Shown piece after piece: positions 28,536 to 46,018 of a stretch of DNA of 64,000 bases. Position 1 is the stretch's first letter, and every line of letters starts with the position of its first letter. The notes under the pieces were generated by a model. That model worked only from the letters and a program-made list of their open reading frames with translations. It ran no database searches and had not been told where the DNA came from. Source of the DNA: Halothece sp. PCC 7418 (lineage in GTDB: Bacteria; Cyanobacteriota; Cyanobacteriia; Cyanobacteriales; Rubidibacteraceae); NCBI RefSeq assembly GCF_000317635.1, contig NC_019779.1, positions 3,100,001-3,164,000 on the forward strand. Direction: 5' to 3'. A program made the translations under genes and the position numbers.

Positions 28536-29777
28536 ATGATTCAGGAAGAAATTTCAGAAAATTTCCAGATTACTGCCTTTCAATCAAGGATTATATATTT
28601 CGTTCAATTTTATTTAGTGATGTTAATCGCTAACTTTTGTTGGCAACCTATTGTAATAGCGGATGAGGGGTTAAATATAAGACTACAAAAAAGCCTTTTA
28701 TTTTCGAGGGAAAGCAGTTTAATCAGTTTGGAACCCATTGAAAAGGTTTCATATCAATTAGACTCTTTACCATTTACAGATCCTTTGGGGGAAGGGATTG
28801 ATTATCAATTTGCTGATCGTAAAAGTTGGCATGATCTGGCTCTGATTATTCAGATCGAGGAGGATAGTGAAGCAAATTTACCAAAAGCGAGTGTTCAAGC
28901 TCAAGACCTGTTGTTTTCAACTTCAGATCAGACCCGATCCACTAGAGAGCTTCTTATGAATTCTCCTGAATCTCCTCTTGAGAAGAATGTAGAAATTCCG
29001 ATGAATACGATTCAAACAGCACAAGCTGATGAAAAAGAAGCAGCTTCCAATAATTATGAGGATCTGGCAAAGCAATCTCAAAATCCAGTTGCAAGTCTGA
29101 TTTCAGTCCCCTTTCAAAATAATACAAATTTTGGGGTGGGTGACTTTGATCGAACCAGTAATATCTTGAATATTCAGCCAGTTATTCCAACACCTATTAA
29201 TGATAATTGGAACTTAGTGAATCGGACAATTATCCCGATCGCGTATCAACCCAAACTAACATCAGGAAGTGATAATGCCTTTGGCTTCGGTGATATCAAT
29301 TATCAAGGATTTTTTACCCCAAGAACAACAGGAGATTTTACTTGGGGGGTAGGACCTTCTTTGATCATTCCCACTGCCACAGATACAGTGCTCGGGTTAG
29401 GGAAATGGTCACTGGGAGCATCAGCCGTCGGCTTGGTCACTAAAGATCGCATTGTTGCAGGAGGTCTGATCAGCCAAGTTTGGTCATTCGCAGGTGATGA
29501 TGATCGCTCTGAGGTTAGTCTTTTAACGCTGCAACCTTTCTTTAACTATAACTTTGAGGGGGGATGGTATGCTGTATCGGCTCCTATTCTCACAGCGAAC
29601 TGGAATGCAGAAGGGGAACAGTGGGTGATTCCGATTGGAGGGGGCTTTGGTCGCGTTTTTAACATTGGCAAGCAACCAGTCAATACTTCTCTGCAAGGCT
29701 ATTGGAATATTGTCCATCCTGACAATGCAGCAGATTGGACAGTGCGCGCACAATTAACTTTGTTATTTCCCAAGTAA
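28536..29777 (+). CDS. Outer-membrane transporter-like protein with beta-barrel C-terminal domain
   Basis: 413 residues: an N-terminal hydrophobic segment (about 17-40), a polar linker to about 180, then a barrel-like domain (SLISVPFQNNTNFGVGDFDR at about 186-205, IPTATDTVLGLGKWSLG, ending LTLLFPK). This domain matches a family often annotated as transporter or mislabelled neuromedin U, and related to MetA-pathway/phenol-degradation outer-membrane proteins. Next gene on the same strand (59 bp on) is a BASS transporter, suggesting an outer/inner membrane pair. The exact start is uncertain; a shorter start exists at 28620. Confidence 0.7.
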   Translation: MIQEEISENFQITAFQSRIIYFVQFYLVMLIANFCWQPIVIADEGLNIRLQKSLLFSRESSLISLEPIEKVSYQLDSLPFTDPLGEGIDYQFADRKSWHDLALIIQIEEDSEANLPKASVQAQDLLFSTSDQTRSTRELLMNSPESPLEKNVEIPMNTIQTAQADEKEAASNNYEDLAKQSQNPVASLISVPFQNNTNFGVGDFDRTSNILNIQPVIPTPINDNWNLVNRTIIPIAYQPKLTSGSDNAFGFGDINYQGFFTPRTTGDFTWGVGPSLIIPTATDTVLGLGKWSLGASAVGLVTKDRIVAGGLISQVWSFAGDDDRSEVSLLTLQPFFNYNFEGGWYAVSAPILTANWNAEGEQWVIPIGGGFGRVFNIGKQPVNTSLQGYWNIVHPDNAADWTVRAQLTLLFPK

Positions 29778-29836
29778 TTGAGTGCATCAAGATTTTCAGT
29801 CAGAGATTACCGTTGGTCAATTAGGATGAAACCACG

Positions 29837-30718
29837 ATGGAAATTGATTTTAAAACGATTATCGGCAGTTATGCTCAAATTACACTGTTTCTTTTGATGC
29901 TTTCCATTGGACTCAAGGAAGGGGTTGAGAATTTAACGCTTCTTTGGAAACGACCGAACTTGTTAATCCGTTGTCTCATTGCCTCTTTTCTTCTAGTCCC
30001 CTTAGCTGCAATTGCAATTGATGCTTTGTTACCGTTGGATACACCCGCTCGTTTGGGAATCGGGGCGATGGCAATCTGTCCGGGAGCACCGATGCTTTAT
30101 CGGAAGTTAGTTCAAAATAATGCAAGTTCAGCCTTAGCTGGCAGTTATCAGGTCACCACATCTTTGTTAGCAATTGTGTTAGTTCCGATTTGGATTGTAT
30201 TTTTAAACGCGCTTTACTTAACTGATAATGCAGCCCCTGTGGCTGTGATTGCTAAGCAGGTGGCAACGGTTCAATTTATCCCAATTTTAGTCGGGCTTGT
30301 GATTCGGGAGTGGTTACCGAATCTCGCCAATGATTTGTTAGATCCAGTGGATAAAATAGGTTCCTATCTTCTGATTGGTGTGTTAATTATTTTATTGGTC
30401 ATTGCGCTTCCGAAAATGGCTCAAATTGGTTTAATAACAACAATTGGTGTGGTGTTGTTTATTGCTGCGACTATTATTATCGGTCATTATTTAGGAGGTC
30501 CTGAACCTGACACTCGGATTTCGATCGCGCTGGCAAATTCCACTCGTAATGCTGGACTCGCCCTCACCTTAGTTGCTTTGAATGTTGAAGAGATGATCAC
30601 AATCCTTGGCACAATCTCCGCGATCGCGCTTTTATCAGCAGTCATCGGTACAATTTATGTCAACTTTTATCGCAAACATTTACCGCAGGAAGTGCCTCCT
30701 GAAGTGAGTGAAAGTTAA
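29837..30718 (+). CDS. BASS-type (bile acid:sodium symporter family) membrane transporter, paralogue 1
   Basis: 293 residues with about nine to ten hydrophobic segments. The family pattern is visible: LLMLSIGLKEGV near the N-terminus, GAMAICPGAPMLYRKL mid-protein (the first crossover region) and ALANSTRNAGLALTLVALN near residues 230-250 (the second). BASS proteins move organic anions such as bile salts, pyruvate, 2-keto acids or sulfur compounds, usually with sodium. Two more BASS domains occur nearby (36231-37583 and 40547-41425). It follows the barrel-like protein and precedes a sulfatase gene. Substrate not deducible. Confidence 0.82.
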   Translation: MEIDFKTIIGSYAQITLFLLMLSIGLKEGVENLTLLWKRPNLLIRCLIASFLLVPLAAIAIDALLPLDTPARLGIGAMAICPGAPMLYRKLVQNNASSALAGSYQVTTSLLAIVLVPIWIVFLNALYLTDNAAPVAVIAKQVATVQFIPILVGLVIREWLPNLANDLLDPVDKIGSYLLIGVLIILLVIALPKMAQIGLITTIGVVLFIAATIIIGHYLGGPEPDTRISIALANSTRNAGLALTLVALNVEEMITILGTISAIALLSAVIGTIYVNFYRKHLPQEVPPEVSES

Positions 30719-30721
30719 ACC

Positions 30722-31093
30722 TCATTTAGGATCAATTTCTCGTTTCAGTTTTAGTCCTTCCGTTGTCTCTTTTTCAAGGAAATAATTGAGGAAAGTCCGA
30801 ATCACAGCAATCATTCCTAACCGAATCAATTGATTTAAAGTGGGCTCAACCGTCGTCGCTAGAATATCTGCTGCTAATTGAAATTCCAAAGCAAGACCCA
30901 ACCAACGGGCAAAAGCAAGACGCATATTCAAAAAAGGGAGTCCATTTCTTTGATCAGCATTCCATCCTGGAAAACAAGTTAAGGCTTTTATGAATCCAAT
31001 TAAGACACAGAAAATTGAGATCCCTTCTAGCAGTAAGATCAGAAAATCAACAATAATCTCAAGCCCACTTCGCAACTGTTCTAGTAACTCCAT
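30722..31093 (-). CDS. DUF1622 family membrane protein
   Basis: 123 residues with two or three hydrophobic segments (about 10-45 and 60-80) and a C-terminal IRTFLNYFLEKE segment typical of DUF1622. Function unknown. It converges with the BASS gene (3-bp gap) and diverges from the sulfatase gene downstream. The family is often found beside transporters or stress-response membrane proteins. Confidence 0.75.
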   Translation of the reverse strand: MELLEQLRSGLEIIVDFLILLLEGISIFCVLIGFIKALTCFPGWNADQRNGLPFLNMRLAFARWLGLALEFQLAADILATTVEPTLNQLIRLGMIAVIRTFLNYFLEKETTEGLKLKREIDPK

Positions 31094-31126
31094 AAATTGA
31101 TCCTCTCGTAATATTCAATTGGGATA

Positions 31127-31184
31127 TATAGCAATCCTACTTACAGGTTAATTGGGGAAGGGGGAGATCAAAAAAAGTTCTATA
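31127..31184 (+). repeat. Short, diverged relative of MITE family A
   Basis: Begins TATAGCAATCCTACTTACAG, very similar to the left end of the element at 7149. It has a G-rich core (GGGGAAGGGGGAGATC) and ends GTTCTATAT. It lies in the roughly 300-bp promoter interval between DUF1622 and the first sulfatase. The rest of that interval is AT-rich with nothing else recognised. Confidence 0.45.
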
Positions 31185-31396
31185 TCTAGAGAAAAACAGT
31201 TTATTATTGTGATTTTTACTTGGTTAAATTTGTGCTAAAAAATGACTAATAAATTTCTGGTTAAGTAAACTCAAAGATATCACATCTGGTCAAAAAATGA
31301 GCGATTGTAACAATTAATATCAAAAATCTTCCCATTATAAACACTAGCTATTAAATTATATACTTAAGTGTTTAAGTTTAACGGTAAATTTTAGTT

Positions 31397-33001
31397 ATGA
31401 AACAGTTGCCTCAATTGCTCAGAAAAGTTGCCCTGCTTTCCTGCACTGTCTTGTTGTTATTGGTTGCTAGCCTCCCCCTTGGGGGTCGCGCGATCGCGCT
31501 ACCGAGTAAACAACCCAATATTGTCGTCATTTGGGGAGATGATATCGGACAAAGCGACATCAGTGCCTTTACAAAAGGGATGATGGGCTTCCGCACCCCG
31601 AATATTGACCGCCTCGCTGAAGAAGGGATGACCTTCACCGACTATTACGGCGAGCAAAGTTGCACCGCGGGTCGTTCTGCTTTTATTACGGGACAGAGTG
31701 TATTTCGCACGGGGTTGAGTAAAGTCGGATTACCTGGTGCTGATTTGGGTCTGCGGGCTGAAGATCCGACGATTGCTGAAATGCTGAAAGCTCAAGGTTA
31801 TGCCACGGCTCAATTTGGTAAAAATCACTTAGGTGATAAGGATGAGTTTTTACCCACGGTTCACGGGTTTGATGAATTCTACGGCAACCTTTACCACCTG
31901 AATGCAGAAGAAGAACCGGAATTGCAGGATTATCCCTCAGCAGAAGAGTTTCCTAATTTCAAAGAAAATTATGGTCCACGCGGTGTTCTCCACAGTTTTG
32001 CTAAAGCCGATGGGGGACAAAAAATCGAAGATACCGGTCCGTTAACCAGCAAGCGCATGGAAACCATTGACGATGATATTGCCAATCGCTCTGTTGAGTA
32101 TGTGAAGCAGCAAGCCGATGGCAATGAGCCATTTTTCATGTGGACAAATTTCACTCACATGCACTTCCGCACCCATACCAAGCCCGAAAGTCTAGGACAA
32201 GCGGGACGCTGGCAATCTTTCTACCATGATACGATGATCGACCATGACCAAAACGTCGGTCAGATTTTAGATGCCATTGATGAAGCGGGTATCGCTGATA
32301 ATACGATTGTTATCTACAGTACGGATAATGGTCCGCACATGAACACCTGGCCCGATGGCGCGATGACTCCTTTCCGAGGTGAGAAAAATACGGGATGGGA
32401 AGGGGCTTTCCGAGTGCCTGCTTTTGTGCGCTGGCCTGGTCATATCGAACCAGGTTCGGTCTCCAATGAAATTATCTCTCACCTCGACTGGATGCCGACT
32501 CTGTTAGCTGCTGCGGGAGAACCGGAAATCAAAGAAAAACTGCTCGATCGTTATCAAGCTGGCAATAAGAGCTTTAAAGTCCATCTCGATGGTTATAATC
32601 TTCTCCCTTATTTAACAGGGGAGCAAGAAAAGAGTCCCAGAGAGTCAATGTTTTATTTCTCTGATGATGGCGATTTGTTAGCCCTGCGGTATGACAACTG
32701 GAAACTGCACTTTGCCCAACAAAGAACACCGGGTACACTCGATCTGTGGACGGAACCGTTTGTAGCAACTCGCGTTCCTTGGCTTTACAACCTCCGCACC
32801 GATCCCTATGAAAAAGCAAGTGTTACCTCTAACACTTACTGGGATTGGTTCATTGACCATGTTTTCTTATTAGTACCAGCTCAGCAATATGTTGGGGATT
32901 TCTTGGCAACGTTTGAAGAATATCCTCCTCGTCAAAAAGCAGCGAGCTTTACCATTGACCAGGTACTGGAGAAGTTAACCAACGCCAACGGTTACCAATA
33001 A
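31397..33001 (+). CDS. Exported type I sulfatase (arylsulfatase family), CTAGR variant
   Basis: 534 residues, Sec signal peptide (about 1-35), then the alkaline-phosphatase-superfamily sulfatase fold. The metal-binding Asp pair is in VVIWGDDIGQSD (about 43-54). The modified cysteine is C89 in CTAGRSAFITGQ, a C-x-A-x-R form of the usual C-x-P-x-R. A second metal segment is YSTDNGPHMNTW (about 309-320). Type I sulfatases need formylglycine at this Cys, and an FGE is encoded at 45032-46018. It releases sulfate from an organic sulfate ester in the periplasm or outside. An outer-membrane-type protein gene follows. Confidence 0.9.
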   Translation: MKQLPQLLRKVALLSCTVLLLLVASLPLGGRAIALPSKQPNIVVIWGDDIGQSDISAFTKGMMGFRTPNIDRLAEEGMTFTDYYGEQSCTAGRSAFITGQSVFRTGLSKVGLPGADLGLRAEDPTIAEMLKAQGYATAQFGKNHLGDKDEFLPTVHGFDEFYGNLYHLNAEEEPELQDYPSAEEFPNFKENYGPRGVLHSFAKADGGQKIEDTGPLTSKRMETIDDDIANRSVEYVKQQADGNEPFFMWTNFTHMHFRTHTKPESLGQAGRWQSFYHDTMIDHDQNVGQILDAIDEAGIADNTIVIYSTDNGPHMNTWPDGAMTPFRGEKNTGWEGAFRVPAFVRWPGHIEPGSVSNEIISHLDWMPTLLAAAGEPEIKEKLLDRYQAGNKSFKVHLDGYNLLPYLTGEQEKSPRESMFYFSDDGDLLALRYDNWKLHFAQQRTPGTLDLWTEPFVATRVPWLYNLRTDPYEKASVTSNTYWDWFIDHVFLLVPAQQYVGDFLATFEEYPPRQKAASFTIDQVLEKLTNANGYQ

Positions 33002-33034: not shown

Positions 33035-33090
33035 CAAGGAGAGAGCAACCTTTTTTGAAATCAGTTAACGAAATTCCAAAGGATAGTTGC

Positions 33091-34203
33091 ATGAAACGAT
33101 TTTCAATTTCACTGGGTGTGTTGTTATTGAGCAGTGTTATCTCTCCTCCCGCCCAAGCCTGTGACCGATCTCATAGGCTTTTACTTAATGCTGAAACGAT
33201 TAACGAGAGTCTAGCAAGGGAAGTTTATCCATTGGATATCTCGGTCTATGAGTGGAGCGATCCACGGGTGTCAATTCAGACGGATGTTGATGATTTCGCG
33301 CTTCCTATTCCCACAAGTGAGGAAACTTGTCTTAAAAATTCCGCAGCGATCGCGCAGTTATCTGGAATCGTCGTCAGTTTACCCAAGCCTTTAGAGTCAG
33401 ATGTTACTCCTGAGTTAACCACTCAAAGTGTTAATGTAAGGGATGAAATTCCTTGGCGATTTATCCTAGAACCCTACATTTATCTCCCCTTAGAAACCAC
33501 TGGCGATATTACCGTTAGGAATACAGAAGTGCCAGTTGATTTCAGCCTTGGGGATATTTTGGATACCCTCAACTTTGCTTTGTATGGACGGTTTGAGGGT
33601 TGGAAGGGTCATTGGGGATTTATTATTGACGCTTATCATTTCAATAGTGCTGATTCAGACTCGACCCGAGTTGATACCCCTCCCGCTTTACAAGGGGTGC
33701 TTCCGGCTCAAATTACGATTAATGCAACTGCGGAAACCGCCTTTACAAAACTGGATTTAGCTGCTGGCTATCGCTTTGGTAATGAGGGATTAACGGATGC
33801 CTTTCAAACCGCTAAGACTGACTTTGAACTGGGTCCCTTTATTTTTGACGCGATCGCGGGATTACGGTTCTACTTTGTCAATAATGACCTCGAACTGACC
33901 AGCGATATTGGTCAAGAGTTTGACTTTAGTAGCTCAAACACCCTAGTTGAACCAATGATTGGCGGTCGCGCCCGCTGGAACCTTTCCGATCACTTAGCGG
34001 TACTCGCCGTGGCTAATTTTTCAGGCTTCGGCATCGGGACGAACATTTCGATAGAAAGTTATGCTGGCATAGACTGGCTCTTTTCAGGTAATACTTCCAT
34101 GACAGCAACTTATCGCCTCACTTACATTAATTATGAAGAGGATGACTCAGGGCTTGATATCTTTCAACATGGTCCTGCCTTGGGAGTCAAATTCCGCTTT
34201 TAA
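33091..34203 (+). CDS. Predicted outer-membrane beta-barrel protein
   Basis: About 370 residues with a signal peptide (MKRFSISLGVLLLSSV..., cleavage near AQA-CDR). After a roughly 110-residue linker, alternating strands from about residue 125 (WRFILEPYIYLPLETTGDI) run to a C-terminal aromatic residue (GVKFRF), typical of an outer-membrane barrel. The ATG at 33091 has AAAGGA 7 nt upstream and is preferred over a TTG at 33055. It follows the sulfatase by about 90 bp on the same strand. Its last 18 codons plus 3' flank are duplicated at 34307-34390. Confidence 0.65.
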   Translation: MKRFSISLGVLLLSSVISPPAQACDRSHRLLLNAETINESLAREVYPLDISVYEWSDPRVSIQTDVDDFALPIPTSEETCLKNSAAIAQLSGIVVSLPKPLESDVTPELTTQSVNVRDEIPWRFILEPYIYLPLETTGDITVRNTEVPVDFSLGDILDTLNFALYGRFEGWKGHWGFIIDAYHFNSADSDSTRVDTPPALQGVLPAQITINATAETAFTKLDLAAGYRFGNEGLTDAFQTAKTDFELGPFIFDAIAGLRFYFVNNDLELTSDIGQEFDFSSSNTLVEPMIGGRARWNLSDHLAVLAVANFSGFGIGTNISIESYAGIDWLFSGNTSMTATYRLTYINYEEDDSGLDIFQHGPALGVKFRF

Positions 34204-34430: not shown

Positions 34431-34841
34431 TTACTGCAATAAAGGACTAATTAAAATGCCAACGAAAGCAATCGTTCCTAAAATAATTAGCACATAAGCA
34501 ACGATCAGCGAGGTCGATTGCCGTGAAATATACGTGAGATCATTGCGTTGAATTCGTCGTAATTGATTTCTATGGTCAAATGTTGCAAATAACATCGCAA
34601 AAGTACCTAAAGCAACAAAAGATAACCCGAGAATGCGTGACAACCGCGCGGGATTGATGGTATCTCCTAATGCTTGATAAATTGCAGCAACAATCCGTTC
34701 AATACCAAAACCGAAACCAATTAAAGACAGTGAAGTCCTAATCCATGCCATTAAGGTTCGTTCTTCTGCTGCTCGGTTACGCTCCTTTGCTAATTCTGTA
34801 CTAGGACTTGGGGTTTGGCGAATATTCTCGGCATCACTCAT
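34431..34841 (-). CDS. DUF202 (YidH-like) membrane protein, paralogue 1
   Basis: 136 residues. The DUF202 signature LAKERNRAAEERTLMAWIRT occurs at about 17-36, followed by three predicted membrane helices (about 38-57, 70-90, 112-133). Function unknown; YidH-like proteins are small inner-membrane proteins. It is one of four DUF202 domains in 3.2 kb. Diverges from the next DUF202 gene across a 350-bp region filled with MITE-like sequence. Confidence 0.85.
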   Translation of the reverse strand: MSDAENIRQTPSPSTELAKERNRAAEERTLMAWIRTSLSLIGFGFGIERIVAAIYQALGDTINPARLSRILGLSFVALGTFAMLFATFDHRNQLRRIQRNDLTYISRQSTSLIVAYVLIILGTIAFVGILISPLLQ

Positions 34842-35191: not shown

Positions 35192-35593
35192 ATGAGTGTT
35201 TCCCAACCTGAAAAACCATCAGGGACAACAAATGAACTTGCCAAAGAACGTAATCGTGCTGCTGCCGAGCGTACAATTAATTCTTGGATCGGTCATTCCT
35301 TGGCTCTCATTGGATTTGGCATTGCCTTCGAGCAAATCACACAAAGTTTGAGAGAACGATTTCCAGAGGCGAATCCTCTAATTACGGAAAATGTTGCTCA
35401 CGCGATCGGTCTTACTTTTATTGGTCTAGATATTATCTTATTAATCATTGCATTGGTGCAACATCGTCTTGAAATCAAAACAATTGAACGAGCAGATTAT
35501 GTCTTTCTCTCAATAAGTAATCTGAACTGGATTGTGATAGTCGGAATTGTATTGCTAGGTTTTGCTGTGATATTTTCCACCCTATTTTTATAA
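35192..35593 (+). CDS. DUF202 membrane protein, paralogue 2
   Basis: 133 residues. Signature LAKERNRAAAERTINSWIGH at about 15-34, then three membrane helices. It differs from paralogue 1 in the usually conserved AWIRTSL region (here SWIGHSL). The start codon directly abuts TATAGCA, the end motif of the MITE families, so its leader may derive from an inserted element. Converges with paralogue 3 (35-bp gap). Confidence 0.8.
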   Translation: MSVSQPEKPSGTTNELAKERNRAAAERTINSWIGHSLALIGFGIAFEQITQSLRERFPEANPLITENVAHAIGLTFIGLDIILLIIALVQHRLEIKTIERADYVFLSISNLNWIVIVGIVLLGFAVIFSTLFL

Positions 35594-35628: not shown

Positions 35629-36018
35629 TCAATCTAAAACTCTGATCACAATCCATCCGAAGGCAAATAAGCTGATGATAACGATCGCGAAACCTGTTAT
35701 TGCGCCTAAAGAAGAACGAGGTGTAAACTGGTACTCTGGCTGTTGTAATCGCTTCATTTCCTGTTGGTAATCGAAACAAGCGAAGATCAGATTGAAGTTG
35801 CCTAAACCCACAAAAAATAAGCTCAAAATATAAGCAAATCGGTTCGCATAAGTATCATTCGGTGATAAAGTCATCACAATTTCCTTCACGCCGATTCCAA
35901 TACTGATCAAAGTTAAGCTATTGCGTGTAAAGGAAAGTAGGGAACGGTTTGCTGCAAGGTAATTACGTTGTCGGGCGAGTTGAGCCTGAGTATCGGGAGG
36001 ATAAGGATTAATTGTCAT
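35629..36018 (-). CDS. DUF202-like membrane protein, paralogue 3
   Basis: About 129 residues. A diverged DUF202 signature LARQRNYLAANRSLLSFTRN is followed by NSLTLISIGIGVKEIV and two further membrane helices. The frame opens at 36042; the ATG at 36018 gives a family-like N-terminus, but neither start has a clear RBS. It lies downstream of the DUF202-BASS fusion on the same strand, separated by a perfect palindrome at 36179-36203. Confidence 0.75.
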   Translation of the reverse strand: MTINPYPPDTQAQLARQRNYLAANRSLLSFTRNSLTLISIGIGVKEIVMTLSPNDTYANRFAYILSLFFVGLGNFNLIFACFDYQQEMKRLQQPEYQFTPRSSLGAITGFAIVIISLFAFGWIVIRVLD

Positions 36019-36178
36019 AGATTGGCAAACACTTGATATCATGCTACGCGCTGGGATAAGGTTAAAGAAGGTTAATTCTCTGTTTTTATTTTTGCTTGTG
36101 TGGTTGAGAGATCGTCAGTTTTAAAGCATCCCCTCTGGTGACTCTGAGGTCTAGATTAAGTGACCTAAGCCCAGTTCA

Positions 36179-37587: not shown

Positions 37588-38100
37588 TCAAGACTCTCCT
37601 TCAGACATCAATCGGGTACTGAGCGCGATCGCGACAATGGATAAAGGAATAATGATAATTTTCCACTCAATTTCGCTCGGGGTTGCAGCTTCCAAGGTGC
37701 GTTTGACAAAGACCACACTCAAAAGCACAAGGAGTACCTCTAATAAACTTTTTTTGAGGGCAGCAATATTTTTAATCTTTAACCACTCGGGAATGTCTAA
37801 ATCATCCCCTTGCAAGTTAAGAAACAGGGCATAGATGCCATAGGCAAAGGAAAGAAAGGCAAGACCAATCAGAAAATTATCCAGTGCTTCTAATAGACGC
37901 AATGTCGCTTCTTCTGCCACGCCAATGGGCATCGTAGTAGTCCCACGCTGGAACGCGATCGCGAAAGCAGCGATCGTTTCTTTAATCCCCAACAACAGCA
38001 TCAGCAATGCAGCAGCGATAGAAGTAAAAACGGGAATGACACTAACCCAGCGTGTTCGTGAGAGAATCTTTAATAACATGGGTGCATTGGTTTTGACCAT
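37588..38100 (-). CDS. UPF0114/YqhA family membrane protein
   Basis: About 170 residues with four predicted membrane helices (VSVIPVFTSIAAALLML, a second around LIGLAFLSFAYGIYALFL, and two near the C-terminus). LEALDNFLIGLAFLSFAYGIY is the recognisable UPF0114 segment, quoted here in two parts: LEALDNFLIGL and AFLSFAYGIY. The Met at 38100 gives the family-typical start; the open frame extends to 38175. The DUF202-BASS gene begins 4 bp after its stop. UPF0114 members include a recently named small-carboxylate transporter subgroup, so linkage with BASS is suggestive. Confidence 0.8.
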   Translation of the reverse strand: MVKTNAPMLLKILSRTRWVSVIPVFTSIAAALLMLLLGIKETIAAFAIAFQRGTTTMPIGVAEEATLRLLEALDNFLIGLAFLSFAYGIYALFLNLQGDDLDIPEWLKIKNIAALKKSLLEVLLVLLSVVFVKRTLEAATPSEIEWKIIIIPLSIVAIALSTRLMSEGES

Positions 38101-38315
38101 TGATTTTGTCCCTGATGAGATTCCAGTTCTCCTGAAATGAAAGATTGTAATTAAACAAAAAGCATTAAGATGCACCGATATTCATATCTACTTAAGTATA
38201 GTATAAGATTATAATATGGCAGTTTTCGCTCTCGTAAAATACCTTCTAAATTTCTGTTTTTTCTCTCTCCCCATTTTAGTGCCTTTGCTCGGGCTTATCG
38301 TTAGCCTGTGACTCA

Positions 38316-38698: not shown

Positions 38699-39313
38699 AT
38701 GAGCAATAGCAACAATATTGAAACTGCTGATTTTACCTCTCAAACCCCACCTCATCGCCGTCGCATCGCTGCTGCTTTTCGTCGTTGGGGCTGGATCGGG
38801 TTTTGGAGCCAACTGATCTTAGGTTTTATTCCAGTTATCTTGGTGACATTCCAATTATTTTTCTCCTCAAAGTCTCAACTCAGAGGGGGTTTAGATTCTG
38901 GAAACATTTTGAGCTTTTTGGATCTCCTCACCCTGTTCTTTACCATTTACTGGTGTTTTCGCTACACGCGATTAGGCATTCAACTCGAAGATTCAAAGCA
39001 ATATCCAAGCTCAGCCAAAGTCATTCGAGAAGTGTGGATTGGAATTATTGCCAATGTTGGGGTCATCTTCCTTGCGGTTTTGATCGGGATAGGTACTGTG
39101 GGAGGATTGCTTTATGTCGTTCTGTCGATGCCACAAGGGGGCGCAACGATTTTGCAGCCTACCCCAGGCGGAAAAATGATTAGCCCAGGACCAATCATAG
39201 TACCGATGGATATGCTGGGTTTGCTCGCTGTGATGAGCGTTATTTTAGCTGGCTTGTTGGGTCTCATGGTTAGCCTGTGGTTAATGCACCGCGCCAGTAC
39301 CCGATCCAAATAG
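38699..39313 (+). CDS. DUF3611 family membrane protein
   Basis: 204 residues, four predicted membrane helices (about 35-56, 72-92, 110-135, 172-196). The N-terminal PPHRRRIAAAFRRWGWIGFW and the internal YWCFRYTRLG match DUF3611, a family of cyanobacteria and chloroplasts of unknown function. No obvious operon. A TA-flanked MITE follows. Confidence 0.8.
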   Translation: MSNSNNIETADFTSQTPPHRRRIAAAFRRWGWIGFWSQLILGFIPVILVTFQLFFSSKSQLRGGLDSGNILSFLDLLTLFFTIYWCFRYTRLGIQLEDSKQYPSSAKVIREVWIGIIANVGVIFLAVLIGIGTVGGLLYVVLSMPQGGATILQPTPGGKMISPGPIIVPMDMLGLLAVMSVILAGLLGLMVSLWLMHRASTRSK

Positions 39314-39734: not shown

Positions 39735-40259
39735 TTATAATACTGAACTGAAATGCTCCTGTAGTTTAGCTTCCTCTTCATAGGACAAATTAGATTGAAT
39801 CAGTTCAGCACTTATCTCCCCTAAAGCTTCTTTGACTTTGTCAAGAGTTGCTTCACCAGTATATAAAAATAGAGCCGATGTCCCTTCAGTCACCTTGCTC
39901 TTGACATCGTTAATAAAGTTGTCATTGATGCCGTAATCACGAAGAGAACCTCCTAAAGCTCCCATTGAGGCTCCGACAGCTATACCTAAGATGGGGCAGA
40001 AAAAGATTAATCCGAAGAGCAACCCCCAGAAGGCTCCATCTAATGCCCCTAAACCTACTAAATTGACAGCTTGTTTGGTTCTGGGTTTCTTTTTCCCTTT
40101 AGGCCAAGAAACAGTAGCAGCATCTTTGATATCAATGATATGCTCCTTTTGTAATTGCGCTAATTTCGTTAAAGTTTCTTCGGCTCCCTTAGGGGTATTG
40201 AATTTCCAAACCGTAAATGAATTCATGAGCTTAGCTTGTAATAGATTCTGTACACTCAT
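39735..40259 (-). CDS. DUF1269 family membrane protein
   Basis: 174 residues. TVWKFNTPKGAEETLTKL at about 16-33, DAATVSWPKGKKKPRTKQ, and a Gly-rich membrane hairpin (GALDGAFWGLLFGLIFFCPI) are diagnostic for DUF1269. The family start is usually close to this segment, so the Met at 40226 is a credible alternative start. Function unknown; members are common in cyanobacteria and stress regions. Confidence 0.85.
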   Translation of the reverse strand: MSVQNLLQAKLMNSFTVWKFNTPKGAEETLTKLAQLQKEHIIDIKDAATVSWPKGKKKPRTKQAVNLVGLGALDGAFWGLLFGLIFFCPILGIAVGASMGALGGSLRDYGINDNFINDVKSKVTEGTSALFLYTGEATLDKVKEALGEISAELIQSNLSYEEEAKLQEHFSSVL

Positions 40260-40546: not shown

Positions 40547-41425
40547 TCATCGATTGGGAAGGGGTTGTTTCCGTTTCATCCATTGGGAATAGGGGATATT
40601 GATAATTATCCCAATAATTTGAGCAGCAAGGATGGTTAAGATCGCATCGGCTCGTGCGAGAGAAGTAGCAATAAAAATCGCTAACCCAAGATTACGCGCG
40701 ATCGCGGCGATGGCAACGCTAGCCTGCAACTGGGGTTCGTAACCCGTGGCTAAGACATGACCGATTGCCAATAGCACCACATTAAACAGCGCGATCATGA
40801 AAAAAGACAGCCAGCCCAAGGTTAACAGCAACTTTGAGTCGATCAGATATATCAAAAGAACGACCACTAAAATTAACAGAAGCACTTGCGAGACTCGATT
40901 GAGAATTTTCGCTAATTGCTCGACCCACCCCGCTTGAATTTGATGAATGGCAAAACCGATACCAAGAGGTAAAAACTGCACCAAAGCAACTTGTTGGATA
41001 ACTCTCCCAATATTGAGTCTGACTGTGGTCGCTTCCGGAAATCCGGCTTGAAAGAGACTGAGAATTAAGGGTGTCACGACAATTGTAATGAGAGCGAGAG
41101 TCACCTGCATACTCAAAGCGAGATTTCGAGTTACCCCAGCTTGGGAAATACGTAGCGTCAGCAGAGGTGGGCCAGGGGCAGCCATCAGTAACGCTAGCGC
41201 GATCGGTACGGGTTTAGGCAAATCGACGGTTAAAATCAATAGTGCTAATAGTAAAGGCGGTAAAACCACCGTAACGAGGAGGGTTCGGAGCATTAACCCC
41301 GATCGCTGCCAAAACTCGCGCAGTTGAGTGACTGACAAGCTCATTCCTAGAGAAAGAACAAACGTCAAGATCGTTACTGAGACAAACCCCTGAAACAAGG
41401 GATTGTTGAAGTTGATAATGTTCAT
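40547..41425 (-). CDS. BASS-type transporter, paralogue 3
   Basis: 292 residues, about nine or ten hydrophobic segments. TFVLSLGMSLSVTQLREFW, LLMAAPGPPLLTLRIS and VAIAAIARNLGLAIFIATS correspond closely to the C-terminal domain of the DUF202-BASS fusion (IFLIAAPGPALLTRRAG and ATIARNAGLAITIATFN). It is therefore nearer to that paralogue than to the one at 29837. It is the last gene of the apparent operon with the HAD phosphatase, sulfatase and FGE, 50 bp after the HAD gene, so transport of a desulfated or sulfated product is plausible. Confidence 0.85.
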   Translation of the reverse strand: MNIINFNNPLFQGFVSVTILTFVLSLGMSLSVTQLREFWQRSGLMLRTLLVTVVLPPLLLALLILTVDLPKPVPIALALLMAAPGPPLLTLRISQAGVTRNLALSMQVTLALITIVVTPLILSLFQAGFPEATTVRLNIGRVIQQVALVQFLPLGIGFAIHQIQAGWVEQLAKILNRVSQVLLLILVVVLLIYLIDSKLLLTLGWLSFFMIALFNVVLLAIGHVLATGYEPQLQASVAIAAIARNLGLAIFIATSLARADAILTILAAQIIGIIINIPYSQWMKRKQPLPNR

Positions 41426-41475: not shown

Positions 41476-42489
41476 TTATTGCCAGGCAAAAAACTGAAGC
41501 CAATCCGTTTTCATGCTGACAACCTGCCAACCCTTGTCTTGAGCGGTATTGAGAGAAGCGTTGTCGGCTTCGCTGTAGGCAAACTCACATTCATCATCAT
41601 CGTGGTTGATTAAAAGTTGAAAAGTTGGATAAAAGGCACTTTGGCTGTAGGTGAGCATGGCAATATCGCCACCGGAACGGACATTGCCACAAGCAAAAAC
41701 AGGCGGTTGACCGATCGCGCGATCAATCCCAACTGGCTTACCTGCCTTATCGTTAATCAGGTCTATCTGAGGCAATCGCCAGATGACATTGCCTCCATCA
41801 ACTGAGCGGTATTCTTTCTCTAAGGAACTGCCGATGACCTGTTGCGGGGTGATACCGTACATCGACGTGGAGATTAACCGCACAAAGTCGATCCCACCGC
41901 CCGTGCAAATCCAAGTTTGAAACCCGTTGGCACGCAGATAAGCCAGCAGTTCAAGCTGAGGCTGATAACCCAGTTCGGTGTATTTGACTCCGTATTCGGG
42001 ATGGGTTGCCGTTTCTAAAAAAGATTGCGCCTTGCGCTCATATTCTTCCTGGGGCATATTGGCACTGATTGTCGCTAAGAGTTTGAGCAGTTCTGCCCTT
42101 GCTTCCGGTTGAGCAAAATAGCTAGGATCGCGAGTCAGCAACGCCCTGACCACTGGTCGGTCTGATAATTCAGGCTGCATTTCGATACGCGCCTTCACCT
42201 GAGAAATCACAAACATCCCTTGGACTAATGGTTGTTCGCACCAGAGAGTGCCATCATTATCAAAAGTTGCGATGCGATCGCGCGGGGGAATATACCCATC
42301 ACTGCCCTCGCTTGTGGCTTGCTGGACAAAGTCTAAAATCGCGGATTTAACCGGTCTGTCTTGCCAGGATGGTAGAGGATCGGGATTCAGGGCAAGTGTC
42401 GGTTGCTGGGGTAAAGACAATGATTGAGCCGTGGGAATGGCAATCACAGCCGGGAGTAATTGTAAGAAGCGCGATCGGGTTAGTTTCAT
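41476..42489 (-). CDS. Exported HAD-superfamily phosphatase
   Basis: 337 residues with an N-terminal export signal (MKLTRSRFLQLLPAVIAIPT). HAD motif I is IATFDNDGTLWC (D77, D79), motif II is TWICTGGG (Thr about 200), and the later VFACGNVRSGGDIAML supplies motif IV-like Asp and Gly residues. The fold resembles the phosphoserine-phosphatase-like HAD group. Secreted HAD proteins of this type are seen beside arylsulfatases. Lies 74 bp after the sulfatase and 50 bp before the BASS gene. Substrate unknown; phosphate removal after sulfate removal is an inference. Confidence 0.85.
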   Translation of the reverse strand: MKLTRSRFLQLLPAVIAIPTAQSLSLPQQPTLALNPDPLPSWQDRPVKSAILDFVQQATSEGSDGYIPPRDRIATFDNDGTLWCEQPLVQGMFVISQVKARIEMQPELSDRPVVRALLTRDPSYFAQPEARAELLKLLATISANMPQEEYERKAQSFLETATHPEYGVKYTELGYQPQLELLAYLRANGFQTWICTGGGIDFVRLISTSMYGITPQQVIGSSLEKEYRSVDGGNVIWRLPQIDLINDKAGKPVGIDRAIGQPPVFACGNVRSGGDIAMLTYSQSAFYPTFQLLINHDDDECEFAYSEADNASLNTAQDKGWQVVSMKTDWLQFFAWQ

Positions 42490-42563: not shown

Positions 42564-44957
42564 TTATTTCAAAGCGAAATTGACTTTATTAATCTGCCCC
42601 GTGAACTCAAATTTGCCTTGATCTTGATAGTCAGGCGCGATCGCGGTAATGGAGTCACGACCCACCTCAAACGGCTCTAAACCGTGACGGAACAAAGAGC
42701 GGGTGAGTTTGCCCTCTCCTGCCAGCTTGTCGTTGACAAACAGCTTGAGAGTCCCACCGCCTTTTTGAGACCCATCGGGAGTAAACTCACTTTTGACAGT
42801 TACTTTGCCCTTAGGTAAGTCAACGGTGCCCGGAATCGTTACATCCCCAATATCAAAGACCGTATAGCGGAAATTGGGTTTGTTGTCTTTAACGTATAGC
42901 GACCAACCCGCCGAAAACGATCCAGCACAAGTAATCACGCCTTCTGCACCTTCTTGGGGAATCGTGACATCAGCAGCGATCGTATGCCCTCTCGGGAACA
43001 GTTGCGGACCGACTGGCTCGGGTAGGCGCACGTCATTGCCGTAATAAGTCCAATCAGTTGGCGGTTCACCGCTCCCTCGCAGTTTCGGATCGAAGCGCTC
43101 GGACAGTCGAGGATCGAGGGGGAAGACATTATACTTCTCGGCTTCCTCAACAAACTTAGCTTGCAATTCCTGCAGTTTGGCTGGGTTTTCTTCCGCAAGA
43201 TCATTTGCCTGACTAAAGTCTTCTTCTAGGTTGTAAAGTTCCCAAGGGGCATCTAGAAAATCTCCCTCGCGAGTCGCGGTATTCCAGGGAACGCCAAAGC
43301 GCGTCGAAGCCATCCAGCCCTCGTCATAGATCCCCCGATTGACAAACATCTCGAAATATTGGGTGGTTCGTTTGTCCTCAGCCTTTTGATTATCAAACGA
43401 GTAGAGCATACTGACTCCTTCGATGGGTTTTTGCTCGATTCCGTTGACTTCGGTGGGTGCGGGAATTTTAGTTGCCTCCAGAATGGTCGGTGCGATGTCA
43501 ATCACGTGATGAAACTGGTCGCGCATTTCCCCTTTAGATTCAATGCCTTGGGGCCAATGCACCACCATCGGGTTACGAGTCCCGCCGAAGTGACTGGCAA
43601 CCTGCTTCGTCCACTGAAAGGGAGAATCCATTGCCCAAGCCCAACCCACGGGGACATGAGGTTCACTGGTGGGTCCGCCGATTTCGTCGAGTCGATTGAT
43701 CGTACTCTCTAATCCCAACTGAATGCCCAGCAAACTCGCCAGTTCACTAAAAGTCCCTTCCAAACCGCCTTCAGCACTAGCGCCGTTGTCGCCGACGATG
43801 TAGAAAATCAGGGTATTGTCTAATTCTCCAGATTCCTCCAAAGCGTCAATGAGGCGACCGATGTGATAGTCGGTATGTGCCATGTATCCCGCATAGTTTT
43901 CCATGAGGCGGGTATAGACCGTTTTCGCCTCTTCAGGCACTTCCTCCCAAGCGGGGATTTCTTTGGGGCGGGGCGTTAGTTGGGTCTCTTCGGGAATGAT
44001 GCCCATCTCTAACTGCTTTTGGTAGGTTAATTCCCGTTGTTTATCCCAGCCGTGATTAAACTGTCCTTTGAACTTTTCCCGCCATTCTGGGGGAACGTGA
44101 TGGGGGGCATGAATCGCGCCGGTACTAAAGTAAACAAACCACGGTTTATCTTTATCGGCTGCTCTCACGTTGCGCGTCCACGCGATCGCTTCATCGGTCA
44201 TATCCGCAGTAAAGTGATAGCCCTCTTCGGGAGTTTTCGACGGACTGACGGGGACTGTATTCCGATAGAGGTTGGGATAGTATTGGTGCGCTTCTCCTTG
44301 GTTAAAGCCGTAGAAGTAATCAAAGCCTAAGCCAGTGGGCCAGCGATTGAAAGGTCCAGCTGGGCTAATGTCTGGTTCTGGGGTATTGTGCCATTTGCCA
44401 AACATAGCGGTGGCGTAACCATTATCATTTAAGGTTTCTGAGATCAGAGCCGTGCTTTTGGGAATGATGCCCGTATAGCCTGGATAGCCAGTTCCTGTTT
44501 CAATAATGACCCCAGTGCCGACACTGTGATGATTGCGCCCAGTGAGCAGGGCAGCGCGGGTGGGACTGCACAGGGCTGTGGTGTGGAAGCGATTGTAGGA
44601 AATGCCGTTACTCGCGAGTTTGTCCAGATTGGGAGTGGGAACCGGTCCGCCAAAGGTGGAGGTCATGCCAAAGCCCACATCATCGAGCAGGATGATCAAC
44701 ACATTGGGGTCTCCTTCGGGAGCCTCTACTGGCTCGGGATAACTGGGAACAGAATCTTTATAGGTTTTGCCCACTTTGCCCTTAAATTCTGGGTCGGGTT
44801 TGGGCAGTTGGATTATTGTCTGAGCCGATTTGCTAGAAACTTCGGCTGCGATCGCGCGATTACTAAAAACTAAATTGTTCGTTAGCACTAAGGCAATTGA
44901 GAGGGCGATCATGACAATTAACTTACTGCAGCAATCGCGAAATAAATGTTTCATCAT
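42564..44957 (-). CDS. Exported type I arylsulfatase (CSPTR)
   Basis: About 797 residues with a signal peptide (about 1-37), the sulfatase metal site LIILLDDVGFGMTSTFGG, and the canonical formylglycine motif CSPTRAALLTGRN (Cys about 130). A second metal site is YIVGDNGASAEG. The C-terminal roughly 130 residues form a beta-rich domain seen in large arylsulfatases. The start at 44957 has GGAG 6 nt upstream; the frame opens at TTG 44969. The gene follows the FGE by 74 bp on the same strand, so enzyme and activator are co-expressed. Only distantly similar to the sulfatase at 31397. Confidence 0.93.
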   Translation of the reverse strand: MMKHLFRDCCSKLIVMIALSIALVLTNNLVFSNRAIAAEVSSKSAQTIIQLPKPDPEFKGKVGKTYKDSVPSYPEPVEAPEGDPNVLIILLDDVGFGMTSTFGGPVPTPNLDKLASNGISYNRFHTTALCSPTRAALLTGRNHHSVGTGVIIETGTGYPGYTGIIPKSTALISETLNDNGYATAMFGKWHNTPEPDISPAGPFNRWPTGLGFDYFYGFNQGEAHQYYPNLYRNTVPVSPSKTPEEGYHFTADMTDEAIAWTRNVRAADKDKPWFVYFSTGAIHAPHHVPPEWREKFKGQFNHGWDKQRELTYQKQLEMGIIPEETQLTPRPKEIPAWEEVPEEAKTVYTRLMENYAGYMAHTDYHIGRLIDALEESGELDNTLIFYIVGDNGASAEGGLEGTFSELASLLGIQLGLESTINRLDEIGGPTSEPHVPVGWAWAMDSPFQWTKQVASHFGGTRNPMVVHWPQGIESKGEMRDQFHHVIDIAPTILEATKIPAPTEVNGIEQKPIEGVSMLYSFDNQKAEDKRTTQYFEMFVNRGIYDEGWMASTRFGVPWNTATREGDFLDAPWELYNLEEDFSQANDLAEENPAKLQELQAKFVEEAEKYNVFPLDPRLSERFDPKLRGSGEPPTDWTYYGNDVRLPEPVGPQLFPRGHTIAADVTIPQEGAEGVITCAGSFSAGWSLYVKDNKPNFRYTVFDIGDVTIPGTVDLPKGKVTVKSEFTPDGSQKGGGTLKLFVNDKLAGEGKLTRSLFRHGLEPFEVGRDSITAIAPDYQDQGKFEFTGQINKVNFALK

Positions 44958-45031
44958 TAAAATCTCCAACCATTTACGGATTTGATAACTTCCCCCTTCC
45001 GAAGGCAGTAGGGGGGATTCTTAACGGGTTA

Positions 45032-46018
45032 CTACTCTAATGGCACAAGTGAGCGAAAACCAATATGAGTTGTCCCAGTGTCAGGCGCTTGGGATTCTCG
45101 GGCTGCCGGACGATAACGGCTACAATAGTTTTTGGCACATAAATGAGAACCGCCTTTAATCACGTGCATTGCACCATCAGTGGGCTTTTTCGGGTCAAAA
45201 CTTTCTTCTTCAGAAGCACCAGTCGGATTGAGGCGATGCGCTTTATCCGCATGGCTGACACCGTACCAATCCGATGTCCATTCCCAAACATTGCCTGTCA
45301 TGTCGTATAACCCGTAACCATTGGCAGGAAAGGATTCAACGGGAGCCGTGCCTAGATAATGATCTTCTTTGGTATTGAAAAACGGAAATATGCCCTGCCA
45401 AGTATTAGCTTTCTGGGCGGAGTATTCGTCACCCCAAGTAAATTTCTTATTCTTCAATCCTCCCCTAGCAGCAAATTCCCACTGCGCTTCTGTGGGTAGG
45501 GTTTTACCCGCCCATTCGGTATAGGCTTGGGCATCTTCATAAGCAATATGCACAACGGGATAATTGTCTTTCCCTTGAATGTCGCTATCGGGTCCAAACG
45601 GGTGTCGCCAGTTTGCGCCTGGAGTCCAATGCCACCAACTCAGATACGCCACTTGTTGCGAGTTCTCAGGAGGCGGTTCAAAAACTAATGAACCAGGTGC
45701 ACGTTCTTCCTCAGACAAGTCTGGAAAGTTTTCTTGAGACAGGGGGCGTTCTGCGACAGTAACATAACCGGTTGCTTCCACAAATTTGGCAAATTCCGCG
45801 TTTGTCACCTCATGTCGATCTATACAGAAGGAACTCACGGAAACATCCTCTGCTGCTTGTTCTTCCCAAAATCTAGACTGATTATCTCCCATCTGAAACG
45901 ATCCCCCAGAAATGAATACCATATCCTCGGGACAAGCAGCAGTATTATCAGCGGGAACGGGTAGCGGAAAAACCAAGAGAATGATCAGCGCGATCGCGCT
46001 ACTAACAATTAATTTCAT
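45032..46018 (-). CDS. Exported formylglycine-generating enzyme (sulfatase-activating)
   Basis: 328 residues. Signal peptide MKLIVSSAIALIILLVFPL with cleavage near VPADN, then the FGE-sulfatase fold (MVFISGGSFQMGD near 33-45, DRHEVTNAEFAKF, LPTEAQWEFAARGG). The two copper-binding active-site cysteines are present as C294 and C299 in GGSHLCAKNYCSRYRPAAR, as in genuine FGEs. The enzyme oxidises the sulfatase Cys to formylglycine. A Sec signal on FGE implies maturation in the periplasm, unlike the usual cytoplasmic bacterial FGE. First gene of an operon with sulfatase, HAD phosphatase and BASS. Confidence 0.92.
   Translation of the reverse strand: MKLIVSSAIALIILLVFPLPVPADNTAACPEDMVFISGGSFQMGDNQSRFWEEQAAEDVSVSSFCIDRHEVTNAEFAKFVEATGYVTVAERPLSQENFPDLSEEERAPGSLVFEPPPENSQQVAYLSWWHWTPGANWRHPFGPDSDIQGKDNYPVVHIAYEDAQAYTEWAGKTLPTEAQWEFAARGGLKNKKFTWGDEYSAQKANTWQGIFPFFNTKEDHYLGTAPVESFPANGYGLYDMTGNVWEWTSDWYGVSHADKAHRLNPTGASEEESFDPKKPTDGAMHVIKGGSHLCAKNYCSRYRPAARESQAPDTGTTHIGFRSLVPLE

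What the first reader, a model, noticed from the sequence alone, without database searches (positions are those of the whole stretch)
28536..46018. Candidate organosulfate-processing and transport island: two sulfatases, exported FGE, exported HAD phosphatase, three BASS transporters, DUF202 set
Within 17.5 kb there are an apparent FGE-sulfatase-HAD-BASS operon (46018 to 40547), a second sulfatase with its own barrel protein, a barrel-BASS pair, and a DUF202-BASS fusion flanked by free DUF202 and UPF0114 genes. The DUF202-BASS fusion links two families of unknown joint function to the same neighbourhood as exported sulfatases. One reading: sulfated compounds are desulfated and dephosphorylated outside the inner membrane, and the product or sulfate is moved by BASS/DUF202 carriers. 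The members and spacing are seen; the joint pathway is inference.
Basis: partly seen in the sequence, partly recalled or inferred. Interest (0 to 1): 0.82.

Follow-up and report, generated by a model that had tools for sequence, protein, structure and literature searches.

The report
Sulfatase cluster with VTC-like membrane proteins
A cyanobacterial gene cluster pairs exported sulfate-releasing enzymes with membrane proteins related to a yeast polyphosphate channel, and this pairing recurs in other bacteria, which suggests a testable role in handling sulfate compounds for a protein family of unknown function (DUF202).

Summary
The two sulfatases and four DUF202 proteins here are the only matches in the genome. 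The clustering is conserved: of 45 cyanobacterial genomes with both families, 26 (10 families) have a pair within 10 kb; 0.58 expected. BASS is in 24 of those 26 loci, against 2 of 12 chosen sulfatase loci without DUF202. Related sets occur on proteobacterial plasmids and, reduced, in E. coli yidF-J. Two Nostoc plasmids carry FGE-sulfatase-BASS near sulfur genes.

Best reading: an organosulfate-scavenging module with a VTC-like DUF202 pore and a divergent BASS carrier. Transport, substrate and regulation are untested.

The parts
   Evidence: ORF; no Pfam match; profile matches in 3 of 26 loci, window included
29837..30718 (+). BASS1, divergent SBF-family transporter
   Evidence: PF01758 E 5.8e-15; below TIGR00841 cut-off
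30722..31093 (-).
   Evidence: PF07784; in 14 of 26 loci, window included
31397..33001 (+). SULF1, exported (by eye) formylglycine-type sulfatase, motif CTAGR at residue 89
   Evidence: PF00884 E 7.9e-52; motifs; best solved chain 7aj0 arylsulfatase
33055..34203 (+). barrelB: barrel-like protein downstream of SULF1
   Evidence: PF13505 below cut-off; profile matches in 9 of 26 loci, window included
34431..34841 (-). DUF202 type a
   Evidence: PF02656; model matches VTC chains first; basic pair R21/R28
35192..35593 (+). DUF202 type b
   Evidence: PF02656; clade support 1.0
35629..36042 (-). DUF202 type c
   Evidence: PF02656; clade support 0.80
36231..37583 (-). DUF202-BASS fusion (type d) with arginine ladder R33, R40, R47, R54
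   Evidence: PF02656 + PF01758; ladder; model; Foldseek
37588..38175 (-). UPF0114 membrane protein, 4 bp upstream of the fusion
   Evidence: PF03350; also in 6 of 80 named DUF202 loci, 5 of them with the fusion
38699..39313 (+). DUF3611 membrane protein, membership of the module doubtful
   Evidence: PF12263; in none of the other 25 related loci by a one-sequence profile; in 1 of 80 named DUF202 loci (L136)
39735..40259 (-). DUF1269 protein, membership of the module doubtful
   Evidence: PF06897; in none of the other 25 related loci by a one-sequence profile; next to DUF202 in 1 of 80 named loci (L105)
40547..41425 (-). BASS3, divergent SBF-family transporter, last gene of the FGE run
   Evidence: PF01758 E 9.8e-11; Arg in place of the conserved Gln
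41476..42489 (-). HAD-family hydrolase, probably exported
   Evidence: PF12710; borderline signal-like start by heuristic; in 4 of 26 loci, window included
42564..44969 (-). SULF2, exported (by eye) 801-aa formylglycine-type sulfatase, motif CSPTR at residue 134
   Evidence: PF00884 E 3e-68; best solved chains 7all and 1hdh arylsulfatases; motifs
45032..46018 (-). formylglycine-generating enzyme with signal-like start, first gene of the run
   Evidence: PF03781 E 1.3e-79; aligned to solved FGEs with both C-x4-C cysteines kept; signal-like start
46673..49357 (-). LuxR/MalT-type regulator upstream of the FGE run; possible regulator, unproven
   Evidence: PF17874, PF00196

Best explanation
The locus is an accessory organosulfate-scavenging module. 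FGE turns the cysteine of the C-x-[PA]-x-R motif of two exported sulfatases into formylglycine, and the sulfatases strip sulfate from organic esters outside the inner membrane. The membrane half moves the products across the inner membrane. DUF202 proteins of types a, b, c and d most likely assemble, like Vtc1/3/4, into a multi-subunit pore lined by their first helices. In type d that helix is prolonged into the cytoplasm by an arginine every seventh residue and is fused to a BASS carrier, giving a basic path suited to anions (sulfate or the desulfated organic acid). The BASS partner differs from sodium-coupled bile-acid symporters at the sodium site. Shown: gene content, motifs, conserved clustering, relationship to VTC1 (weak by sequence, best by structure), one-of-each DUF202 types, arginine ladder, sodium-site changes. 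Inferred: pore formation, topology, substrate, direction of transport, use for sulfur nutrition.
For: Conserved clustering: 26 of 45 genomes within 10 kb against 0.58 expected; BASS in 24 of 26 of these loci, DUF202 fused or adjacent to BASS in 20 of 26; FGE or an anSME-like protein in 14 of 26. Other phyla: Paraburkholderia sulfatase-anSME beside DUF202-BASS; Phyllobacterium DUF202-sulfatase-BASS-FGE-DUF1622; Neorhizobium DUF202-sulfatase-sulfatase-DUF1622, no BASS seen; E. coli yidF, yidH, yidJ; FGE-sulfatase-sulfatase-...-BASS in the archaeon Halobaculum, no DUF202 seen. Sulfur context: FGE-sulfatase-BASS near ssu genes and near metX, a sulfhydrylase, YeeE and a TauD-type gene; SsuA-D-like genes among the sulfatases of L055. 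Pore: VTC1 chains are the top 4 of 6 sequence hits, VTC chains the top 5 structural hits. Vtc1 K24/R31 line the VTC pore (PMC9911596 passages); the same 7-residue spacing is R21/R28 in DUF202a. Types never repeat within a locus in 47 loci with two or more placed copies. Fusion ladder 4-11, all arginine, in 11 of 11.
Against: No transport, binding or expression data. 38 of 73 DUF202 copies in genomes holding both families are not within 10 kb of a sulfatase, and 65 of 80 named DUF202 loci show no sulfatase in the stretch held, so DUF202 is not sulfatase-specific. 12 of 26 clusters have neither FGE nor an anSME-like gene in the stretch held. The two Nostoc trios, the Sphaerospermopsis BASS-sulfatase pair and the Halobaculum set show no DUF202 in the stretch read. 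Two fusion loci (L089, L095) have no sulfatase in the stretch held; a third (L067) is a 3.3-kb contig. Of 14 plasmid regions opened, 6 show no sulfatase (profiles). The VTC sequence match is weak (E 0.0025), and no structural hit of DUF202a reaches E 0.001. Alanine changes of Vtc1 K24/R31 raised, not lowered, VTC activity in vitro. Co-regulation of the two halves was not tested.
Confidence: 0.55

Rival explanations
1. The sulfatases remodel or recycle the cell's own sulfated extracellular polysaccharide (or feed on that of others) for carbon or envelope properties; the membrane proteins import sugars or acids rather than sulfate.
For: MFS sugar-type transporter in the related cassette; in Shark Bay mats cyanobacteria are named as the primary sources of sulfated polysaccharide and the cyanobacterial sulfatases examined all had signal peptides (PMC9723792 passages); solved relatives of SULF1 include a carrageenan sulfatase at E 3e-48.
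Against: No glycoside hydrolase family was found in the island's proteins; the nearest one identified among the ORFs scanned, GHL5, lies 15 kb away. SULF2 is closest to arylsulfatases such as 1hdh. Sulfur genes lie near the FGE-sulfatase-BASS trio in two Nostoc plasmids.
Confidence: 0.2
2. DUF202, UPF0114, DUF1622, MscS and bestrophin-like proteins form a general anion or osmotic homeostasis group of the envelope, and sulfatases merely share accessory envelope islands with them.
For: DUF202 c-b-a triples occur without sulfatases in the stretch held in Nodosilinea and others, near LytR-CpsA-Psr and other genes; MscS at 49605 and a bestrophin-like protein at 54362 lie nearby, and MscS lies beside DUF202 in other loci too.
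Against: DUF202-sulfatase proximity far exceeds uniform placement and spans ten families and proteobacterial plasmids; fusions associate with sulfatases, 8 of 11 loci against 7 of 69 others, Fisher p 2.8e-5 without correction for kinship or contig length.
Confidence: 0.15
3. The formylglycine enzymes and HAD protein act on phosphate or phosphonate esters, so the module is for phosphorus.
For: Formylglycine enzymes include phosphonate and phosphodiester hydrolases (recalled); a 5'-nucleotidase-like gene lies in 3 related loci, L042, L069 and L147; HAD in the run; PhoX at 1952-4135 of the window; VTC handles polyphosphate.
Against: Among solved chains SULF1 and SULF2 score best to arylsulfatases; they reach no NCBIfam cut-off, neither PehA (57.5 and 68.4 bits against 900) nor arylsulfatase (93.9 and 103.4 against 481). 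Sulfur genes, not annotated phosphorus genes, lie near the Nostoc trios.
Confidence: 0.1

Closest known systems
E. coli K-12 yidF-yidG-yidH-yidI-yidJ-yidK region
   Same: DUF202 protein YidH, sulfatase YidJ, a YidF match to my anSME-like profile and a putative transporter gene together
   Different: no BASS or FGE match by my profiles, no fusion; function of that locus unknown
Eukaryotic VTC complex (Vtc1/Vtc3/Vtc4)
   Same: three-helix domain of the DUF202 kind, paired basic residues seven apart in helix 1, several distinct subunits; best structural match of the DUF202a model
   Different: no SPX or polymerase domain; fused to BASS instead; long arginine ladder; bacterial, next to sulfatases
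BASS / SLC10 symporters (ASBT_NM, ASBT_Yf, NTCP)
   Same: SBF domain and overall fold
   Different: glutamate of the sodium site absent in 22 of 22 rows and the following Gln replaced by Arg in 22 of 22; far below the TIGR00841 cut-off
Pseudomonas aeruginosa AtsA type arylsulfatase (1hdh; species and name recalled) and FGE
   Same: catalytic motifs and strong sequence match
   Different: SULF2 runs on to 801 aa beyond the matched part (residues 88-603); FGE here has a signal-like start
Nostoc plasmid FGE-sulfatase-BASS trio
   Same: same order as 46018-40547 without HAD
   Different: no DUF202 in the stretch read; sulfur genes nearby

Membership tests
Formylglycine-dependent sulfatase (PF00884) | PF00884 domain over its cut-off | tested here: met
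   SULF1 176.9 bits, SULF2 230.8 bits against 25
Formylglycine-dependent sulfatase (PF00884) | C-x-[PA]-x-R maturation motif and GK.H / DNG motifs (motifs recalled) | tested here: met
   SULF1 CTAGR, GKNH, DNG; SULF2 CSPTR, GKWH, DNG
Formylglycine-dependent sulfatase (PF00884) | sulfate ester hydrolysis | not testable with these tools
   needs an enzyme assay
Formylglycine-generating enzyme | PF03781 domain plus the two catalytic cysteines (role recalled) | tested here: met
   267.9 bits; GGSHLCAKNYCSRYR aligned with solved FGEs
VTC-type channel | homology of the DUF202 domain to Vtc1 | tested here: met
   top 4 of 6 profile hits are VTC1, weak E 0.0025-0.0066; top 5 structural hits are VTC, probability 0.99-1.00 but E 0.045-0.49
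VTC-type channel | basic pair seven residues apart in helix 1 | tested here: met
   R21/R28 in DUF202a; at least two steps in all 147 distinct free sequences with the anchor motif, 3 of 151 free ORFs lacking the motif; Vtc1 K24/R31
VTC-type channel | SPX and polyphosphate polymerase domains in the complex | tested here: not met
   only DUF202 and SBF families in these four proteins, apart from one sub-cut-off Wzy match; so it is not filed as a VTC complex
VTC-type channel | pentameric pore and anion passage | not testable with these tools
   only single chains can be folded here
BASS sodium symporter | SBF domain and fold | tested here: met
   PF01758 over cut-off in all three; fusion model Foldseek E 1.9e-8 to ASBT
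BASS sodium symporter | sodium-site glutamate (E254 of ASBT_Yf; role recalled) | tested here: not met
   0 of 22 rows have Glu, 22 of 22 have Arg at the later Gln position; one further row has a gap
BASS sodium symporter | TIGR00841 bass subfamily cut-off | tested here: not met
   67.4, 57.6 and 36.7 bits against 326.3

The most novel reading that the evidence does not exclude
Bacteria have a VTC-like hetero-oligomeric anion channel made of four DUF202 subunit types, one of them fused to a sodium-independent BASS carrier and carrying a cytoplasmic arginine-ladder funnel of variable length, which takes up sulfate or sulfated/desulfated organic anions produced by exported sulfatases; the yeast polyphosphate channel would be a relative of this bacterial anion pathway.
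Probability: 0.3. Interest if true: 0.85.

Novelty: new variant of a known kind. Interest (0 to 1): 0.66.

Why it matters
DUF202 is of unknown function in bacteria (Pfam name). A conserved link to sulfatases and a divergent BASS carrier, with distinct subunit types and a fused partner bearing an arginine ladder, gives a concrete and testable hypothesis for it. It would also connect bacterial organosulfate use with the eukaryotic polyphosphate channel. Four searches of the held paper library listed no paper that I judged on topic: DUF202+sulfatase, 2 papers; DUF202+sulfate+membrane protein+operon, 1; DUF202+cyanobacteri, 3; DUF202+VTC, 4, eukaryotic or general by their titles. Of these I opened passages of PMC10434189 (its DUF202 word-start hits are DUF2023 and DUF2027) and PMC12388464; the others I judged from the listings. 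The library lacks most subscription journals, so this is no proof of novelty.

Tried and rejected
Empty-site test: the left neighbour (TamB-like) and the LuxR/MalT gene have no close match in G001-G004, so no empty site could be read. DUF3611 and DUF1269 as core members: absent from the other 25 loci, though each occurs in 1 of 80 named DUF202 loci. HAD as core: 4 of 26, window included. Exported FGE as a general rule: 9 of 25 FGEs look signal-bearing by my heuristic, which flags only 22 of 65 sulfatases and so may undercount. A relation of the Neorhizobium barrel 'transporter' to barrelA/B: none found. E. coli YidH as a D-alanine exporter: candidate in a screen, not borne out by the accumulation assay in the passages seen (PMC10299036). 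BASS places across the phylum: the row list was cut, so only per-genome counts were used. The named scan kept the best 80 of 407 DUF202 relatives, 78 of them cyanobacterial by record title, so evidence from other phyla rests on plasmids and E. coli. A sulfur-starvation array paper on Synechocystis (PMC2491639, passages) mentions arylsulfatase only in other organisms. A search for sodium-site papers gave none.

Choices that bear on counts: I used sulfatase rows with E up to 3.6e-23 (62 genomes) and dropped weaker rows; the chance model is uniform placement without correction for kinship or contig breaks. In one search, of 40 fetched stretches, L029 and L030 (pairs 10-20 kb apart) and L053 (5-kb contig) were left out of both groups, the window was added to the first group (25 + 1), and the 12 comparison loci were my choice, not a random draw; family labels there come from my own profiles, some built from one or two sequences. 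In one search three DUF202 domains were not placed, and the clades were defined by the window sequences on a midpoint-rooted tree (supports: a 0.44, b 1.0, c 0.80, d 0.76). Alignment A1 includes E. coli YidG, which my DUF202 profile did not find again. Plasmid regions: 14 of 17 records with a match were opened; the 3 not opened are Paraburkholderia close to L148. The BASS query itself lies near a sulfatase, which biases that sample.
Full report
WHAT IS THERE. The window is part of a single-contig cyanobacterial genome of 4,179,170 bases. On the minus strand FGE, SULF2, HAD and BASS3 run from 46018 to 40547 with gaps of 62, 74 and 50 bp. On the plus strand barrelA-BASS1 and SULF1-barrelB form two pairs. 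Between them lie three free DUF202 genes, a DUF202-BASS fusion and, 4 bp upstream of the fusion, UPF0114. The genome has two sulfatase and four DUF202 matches, all here. It has four SBF matches, three of them here, and three PF03781 matches, one here. Of five congeners searched, three have neither DUF202 nor sulfatase (G001-G003), one has DUF202 only (G004, 85% complete) and one has both (G005). G005 carries FGE and SULF2 at 79% and 94% identity. The island is therefore accessory.

ENZYMES. SULF1 has CTAGR, GKNH and DNG; SULF2 has CSPTR, GKWH and DNG. Their best solved relatives are arylsulfatases: 7aj0 for SULF1, 7all and 1hdh for SULF2. FGE aligns over its length with solved formylglycine-generating enzymes and keeps both cysteines of C-x4-C. 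FGE, and HAD at the borderline, begin with signal-like stretches by my heuristic. The two sulfatases do so by eye. Nine of 25 FGEs examined look signal-bearing by that heuristic.

IS THE CLUSTERING MORE THAN CHANCE? In 291 cyanobacterial genomes DUF202 was found in 89 and strong sulfatase matches (E up to 3.6e-23) in 62. Of the 45 genomes with both, 22 have a pair within 5 kb (0.29 expected) and 26 within 10 kb (0.58 expected). By the family labels these 26 fall in ten families. The model ignores kinship, but ten families remain far above expectation. In the 26 loci (25 fetched plus the window) my profiles find BASS in 24, FGE or an anSME-like protein in 14, DUF1622 in 14, AraC regulators in 9 and HAD in 4. 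DUF202 is fused or adjacent to BASS on the same strand in 20. Among 12 chosen sulfatase loci without DUF202, BASS is in 2. A named scan kept 80 of 407 DUF202 loci. Eleven carry the fusion; 8 of those 11 have a sulfatase in the stretch held, against 7 of the other 69 (Fisher p 2.8e-5, kinship and contig length not corrected). In L069 (Nodosilinea) and L071 (Phormidium) the order is sulfatase, a small gene, UPF0114, MFS transporter, DUF1622, DUF202 c, b (reversed), a, fusion, FGE; L070 (Halomicronema) is similar. A 93.5-kb plasmid of Leptolyngbya sp. BL0902 carries nearly the same set without UPF0114.

OUTSIDE THAT SAMPLE. E. coli K-12 has yidF, yidG, yidH, yidI, yidJ and yidK side by side; YidF, YidH and YidJ match my anSME-like, DUF202 and sulfatase profiles. 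Protein searches of plasmids with two DUF202 and two BASS queries matched 17 records. I opened 14, and 8 hold a sulfatase: BL0902; Paraburkholderia caribensis (sulfatase and anSME-like on one strand, DUF202 and BASS on the other); Phyllobacterium (DUF202, sulfatase, BASS, FGE, DUF1622 on one strand, with sulfatase and FGE each split over two frames); Neorhizobium (DUF202, two arylsulfatases, DUF1622, no BASS seen); Sphaerospermopsis (BASS-sulfatase); the archaeon Halobaculum (FGE, two arylsulfatases, two further genes, BASS on one strand); and two Nostoc plasmids. Six hold none: Microvirga, Nostoc HK-01 and four haloarchaeal plasmids. The Nostoc, Sphaerospermopsis and Halobaculum sets show no DUF202 in the stretch read. 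One Nostoc FGE-sulfatase-BASS trio lies near ssu sulfonate genes. The other lies near metX, an O-acetylhomoserine sulfhydrylase/cysteine synthase, YeeE/YedE and a TauD-type dioxygenase. SsuA, B, C and D-like genes also lie among the sulfatases of L055. This is the best evidence for a role in sulfur nutrition.

THE MEMBRANE HALF. A profile of DUF202 proteins finds six solved chains at E up to 1, the best four of them Vtc1 (E 0.0025-0.0066). A model of DUF202a (mean pLDDT 73) matches VTC chains in its first five places (probability 0.99-1.00, TM by target up to 0.79, but E 0.045-0.49). In the fusion model (mean pLDDT 85.5) the BASS half matches ASBT and NTCP, and a VTC chain appears at rank 47 (E 1.3, probability 0.99). 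In the VTC paper (passages of PMC9911596) three Vtc1, one Vtc3 and one Vtc4 form a channel whose first helices line the pore, with K24 and R31 of Vtc1 among the basic residues; changing these two to alanine increased activity in vitro, while changes in Vtc3 or Vtc4 reduced it. DUF202a has R21 and R28 at the same seven-residue spacing, and R28 aligns with R31.

THE ARGININE LADDER. Walking back from that arginine in steps of seven, 144 of 147 distinct free DUF202 sequences have exactly two arginines; two have three and one has seven. Three of 151 free ORFs lack the anchor motif and were not scored. All 11 fusions of the 80-locus set have 4 to 11, every step an arginine, and the window's has four: R33, R40, R47, R54. 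The model shows one unbroken helix from residue 26 to 81. An arginine every seventh residue stays near one face of a helix, so several such helices together would make a basic funnel; that assembly is inference.

ONE OF EACH. A tree of 170 DUF202 domains gives four groups around the window's copies: a (70 loci), b (47), c (30), d (23, of which 14 are fused counting the window). No group occurs twice in one locus, and in all 47 other loci with two or more placed copies the types differ. Distinct subunits kept side by side are what a hetero-oligomer would give, as in VTC. Support for group a is low (0.44).

THE BASS PARTNERS. In 22 of 22 rows of alignment A2 (one further row has a gap) the position aligned with E254 of ASBT_Yf is not glutamate, and the later glutamine is arginine. 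That this Glu and Gln are sodium ligands is recalled; the solved E254A mutant (4n7x, title) shows the Glu was singled out. Sodium coupling of the usual kind is therefore doubtful.

VERDICT. The most likely reading is an organosulfate-scavenging module with a VTC-like DUF202 pore and a divergent BASS carrier. What passes through, in which direction, and when the genes are expressed is not known. DUF202 also occurs in many places without sulfatases in reach, and BASS-sulfatase sets occur without DUF202, so the link is one use of each family, perhaps not the only one. Four paper searches listed no report of the link that I could recognise.

Noticed in passing
window 46673-49357: LuxR/MalT-type regulator directly upstream of the FGE run; of five congeners only G005 has a fuller relative, at 33-36% identity; candidate regulator.
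   Followed up: partly
window 22233-27992: TamB-like 1919-aa protein left of the island; the genome has a second, distant copy, and among five congeners only G005 has a close match at 60%. The neighbourhood is variable as a whole.
   Followed up: partly
window 49605-51335 and 54362-55189: MscS-type and bestrophin-like genes to the right of the island; MscS also lies beside DUF202 in L096 (Chlorogloeopsis) and in L107 and L119 nearby.
   Followed up: no
window 1952-4135: PhoX alkaline phosphatase at the left of the window, with a carbohydrate phosphorylase and a phosphoketolase at 7443-12505.
   Followed up: no
L073, L075, L078, L080-L083, L085, L086: DUF202 c-b-a triples in Nodosilinea-type genomes with no sulfatase or BASS found in the stretch held, in a shared context with LytR-CpsA-Psr, FemAB-like and in several a cyclase gene: DUF202 has another setting.
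   Followed up: partly
L087:10933-11658: DUF202 protein of the fusion type with a seven-step ladder but no BASS part detected.
   Followed up: no
L026, L061, L063, L064 and others: DUF1254/DUF1214 proteins recur near cyanobacterial sulfatases, in these four loci in two or more copies.
   Followed up: no
L147 (Leptolyngbya sp. BL0902 plasmid, NZ_CP046157.1): Nearly the whole cassette on a 93.5-kb plasmid, with a transposase gene just before the sulfatase: likely horizontal spread.
   Followed up: partly
related FGE genes in L026-L120: Both signal-bearing and plain FGEs occur with cyanobacterial sulfatases (9 of 25 signal-like by heuristic), so maturation may happen in different compartments.
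   Followed up: partly
L156 (Halobaculum plasmid, NZ_CP120469.1): Archaeal FGE, two arylsulfatases and a BASS protein on one strand, with three further short frames after it that match my BASS profile.
   Followed up: no
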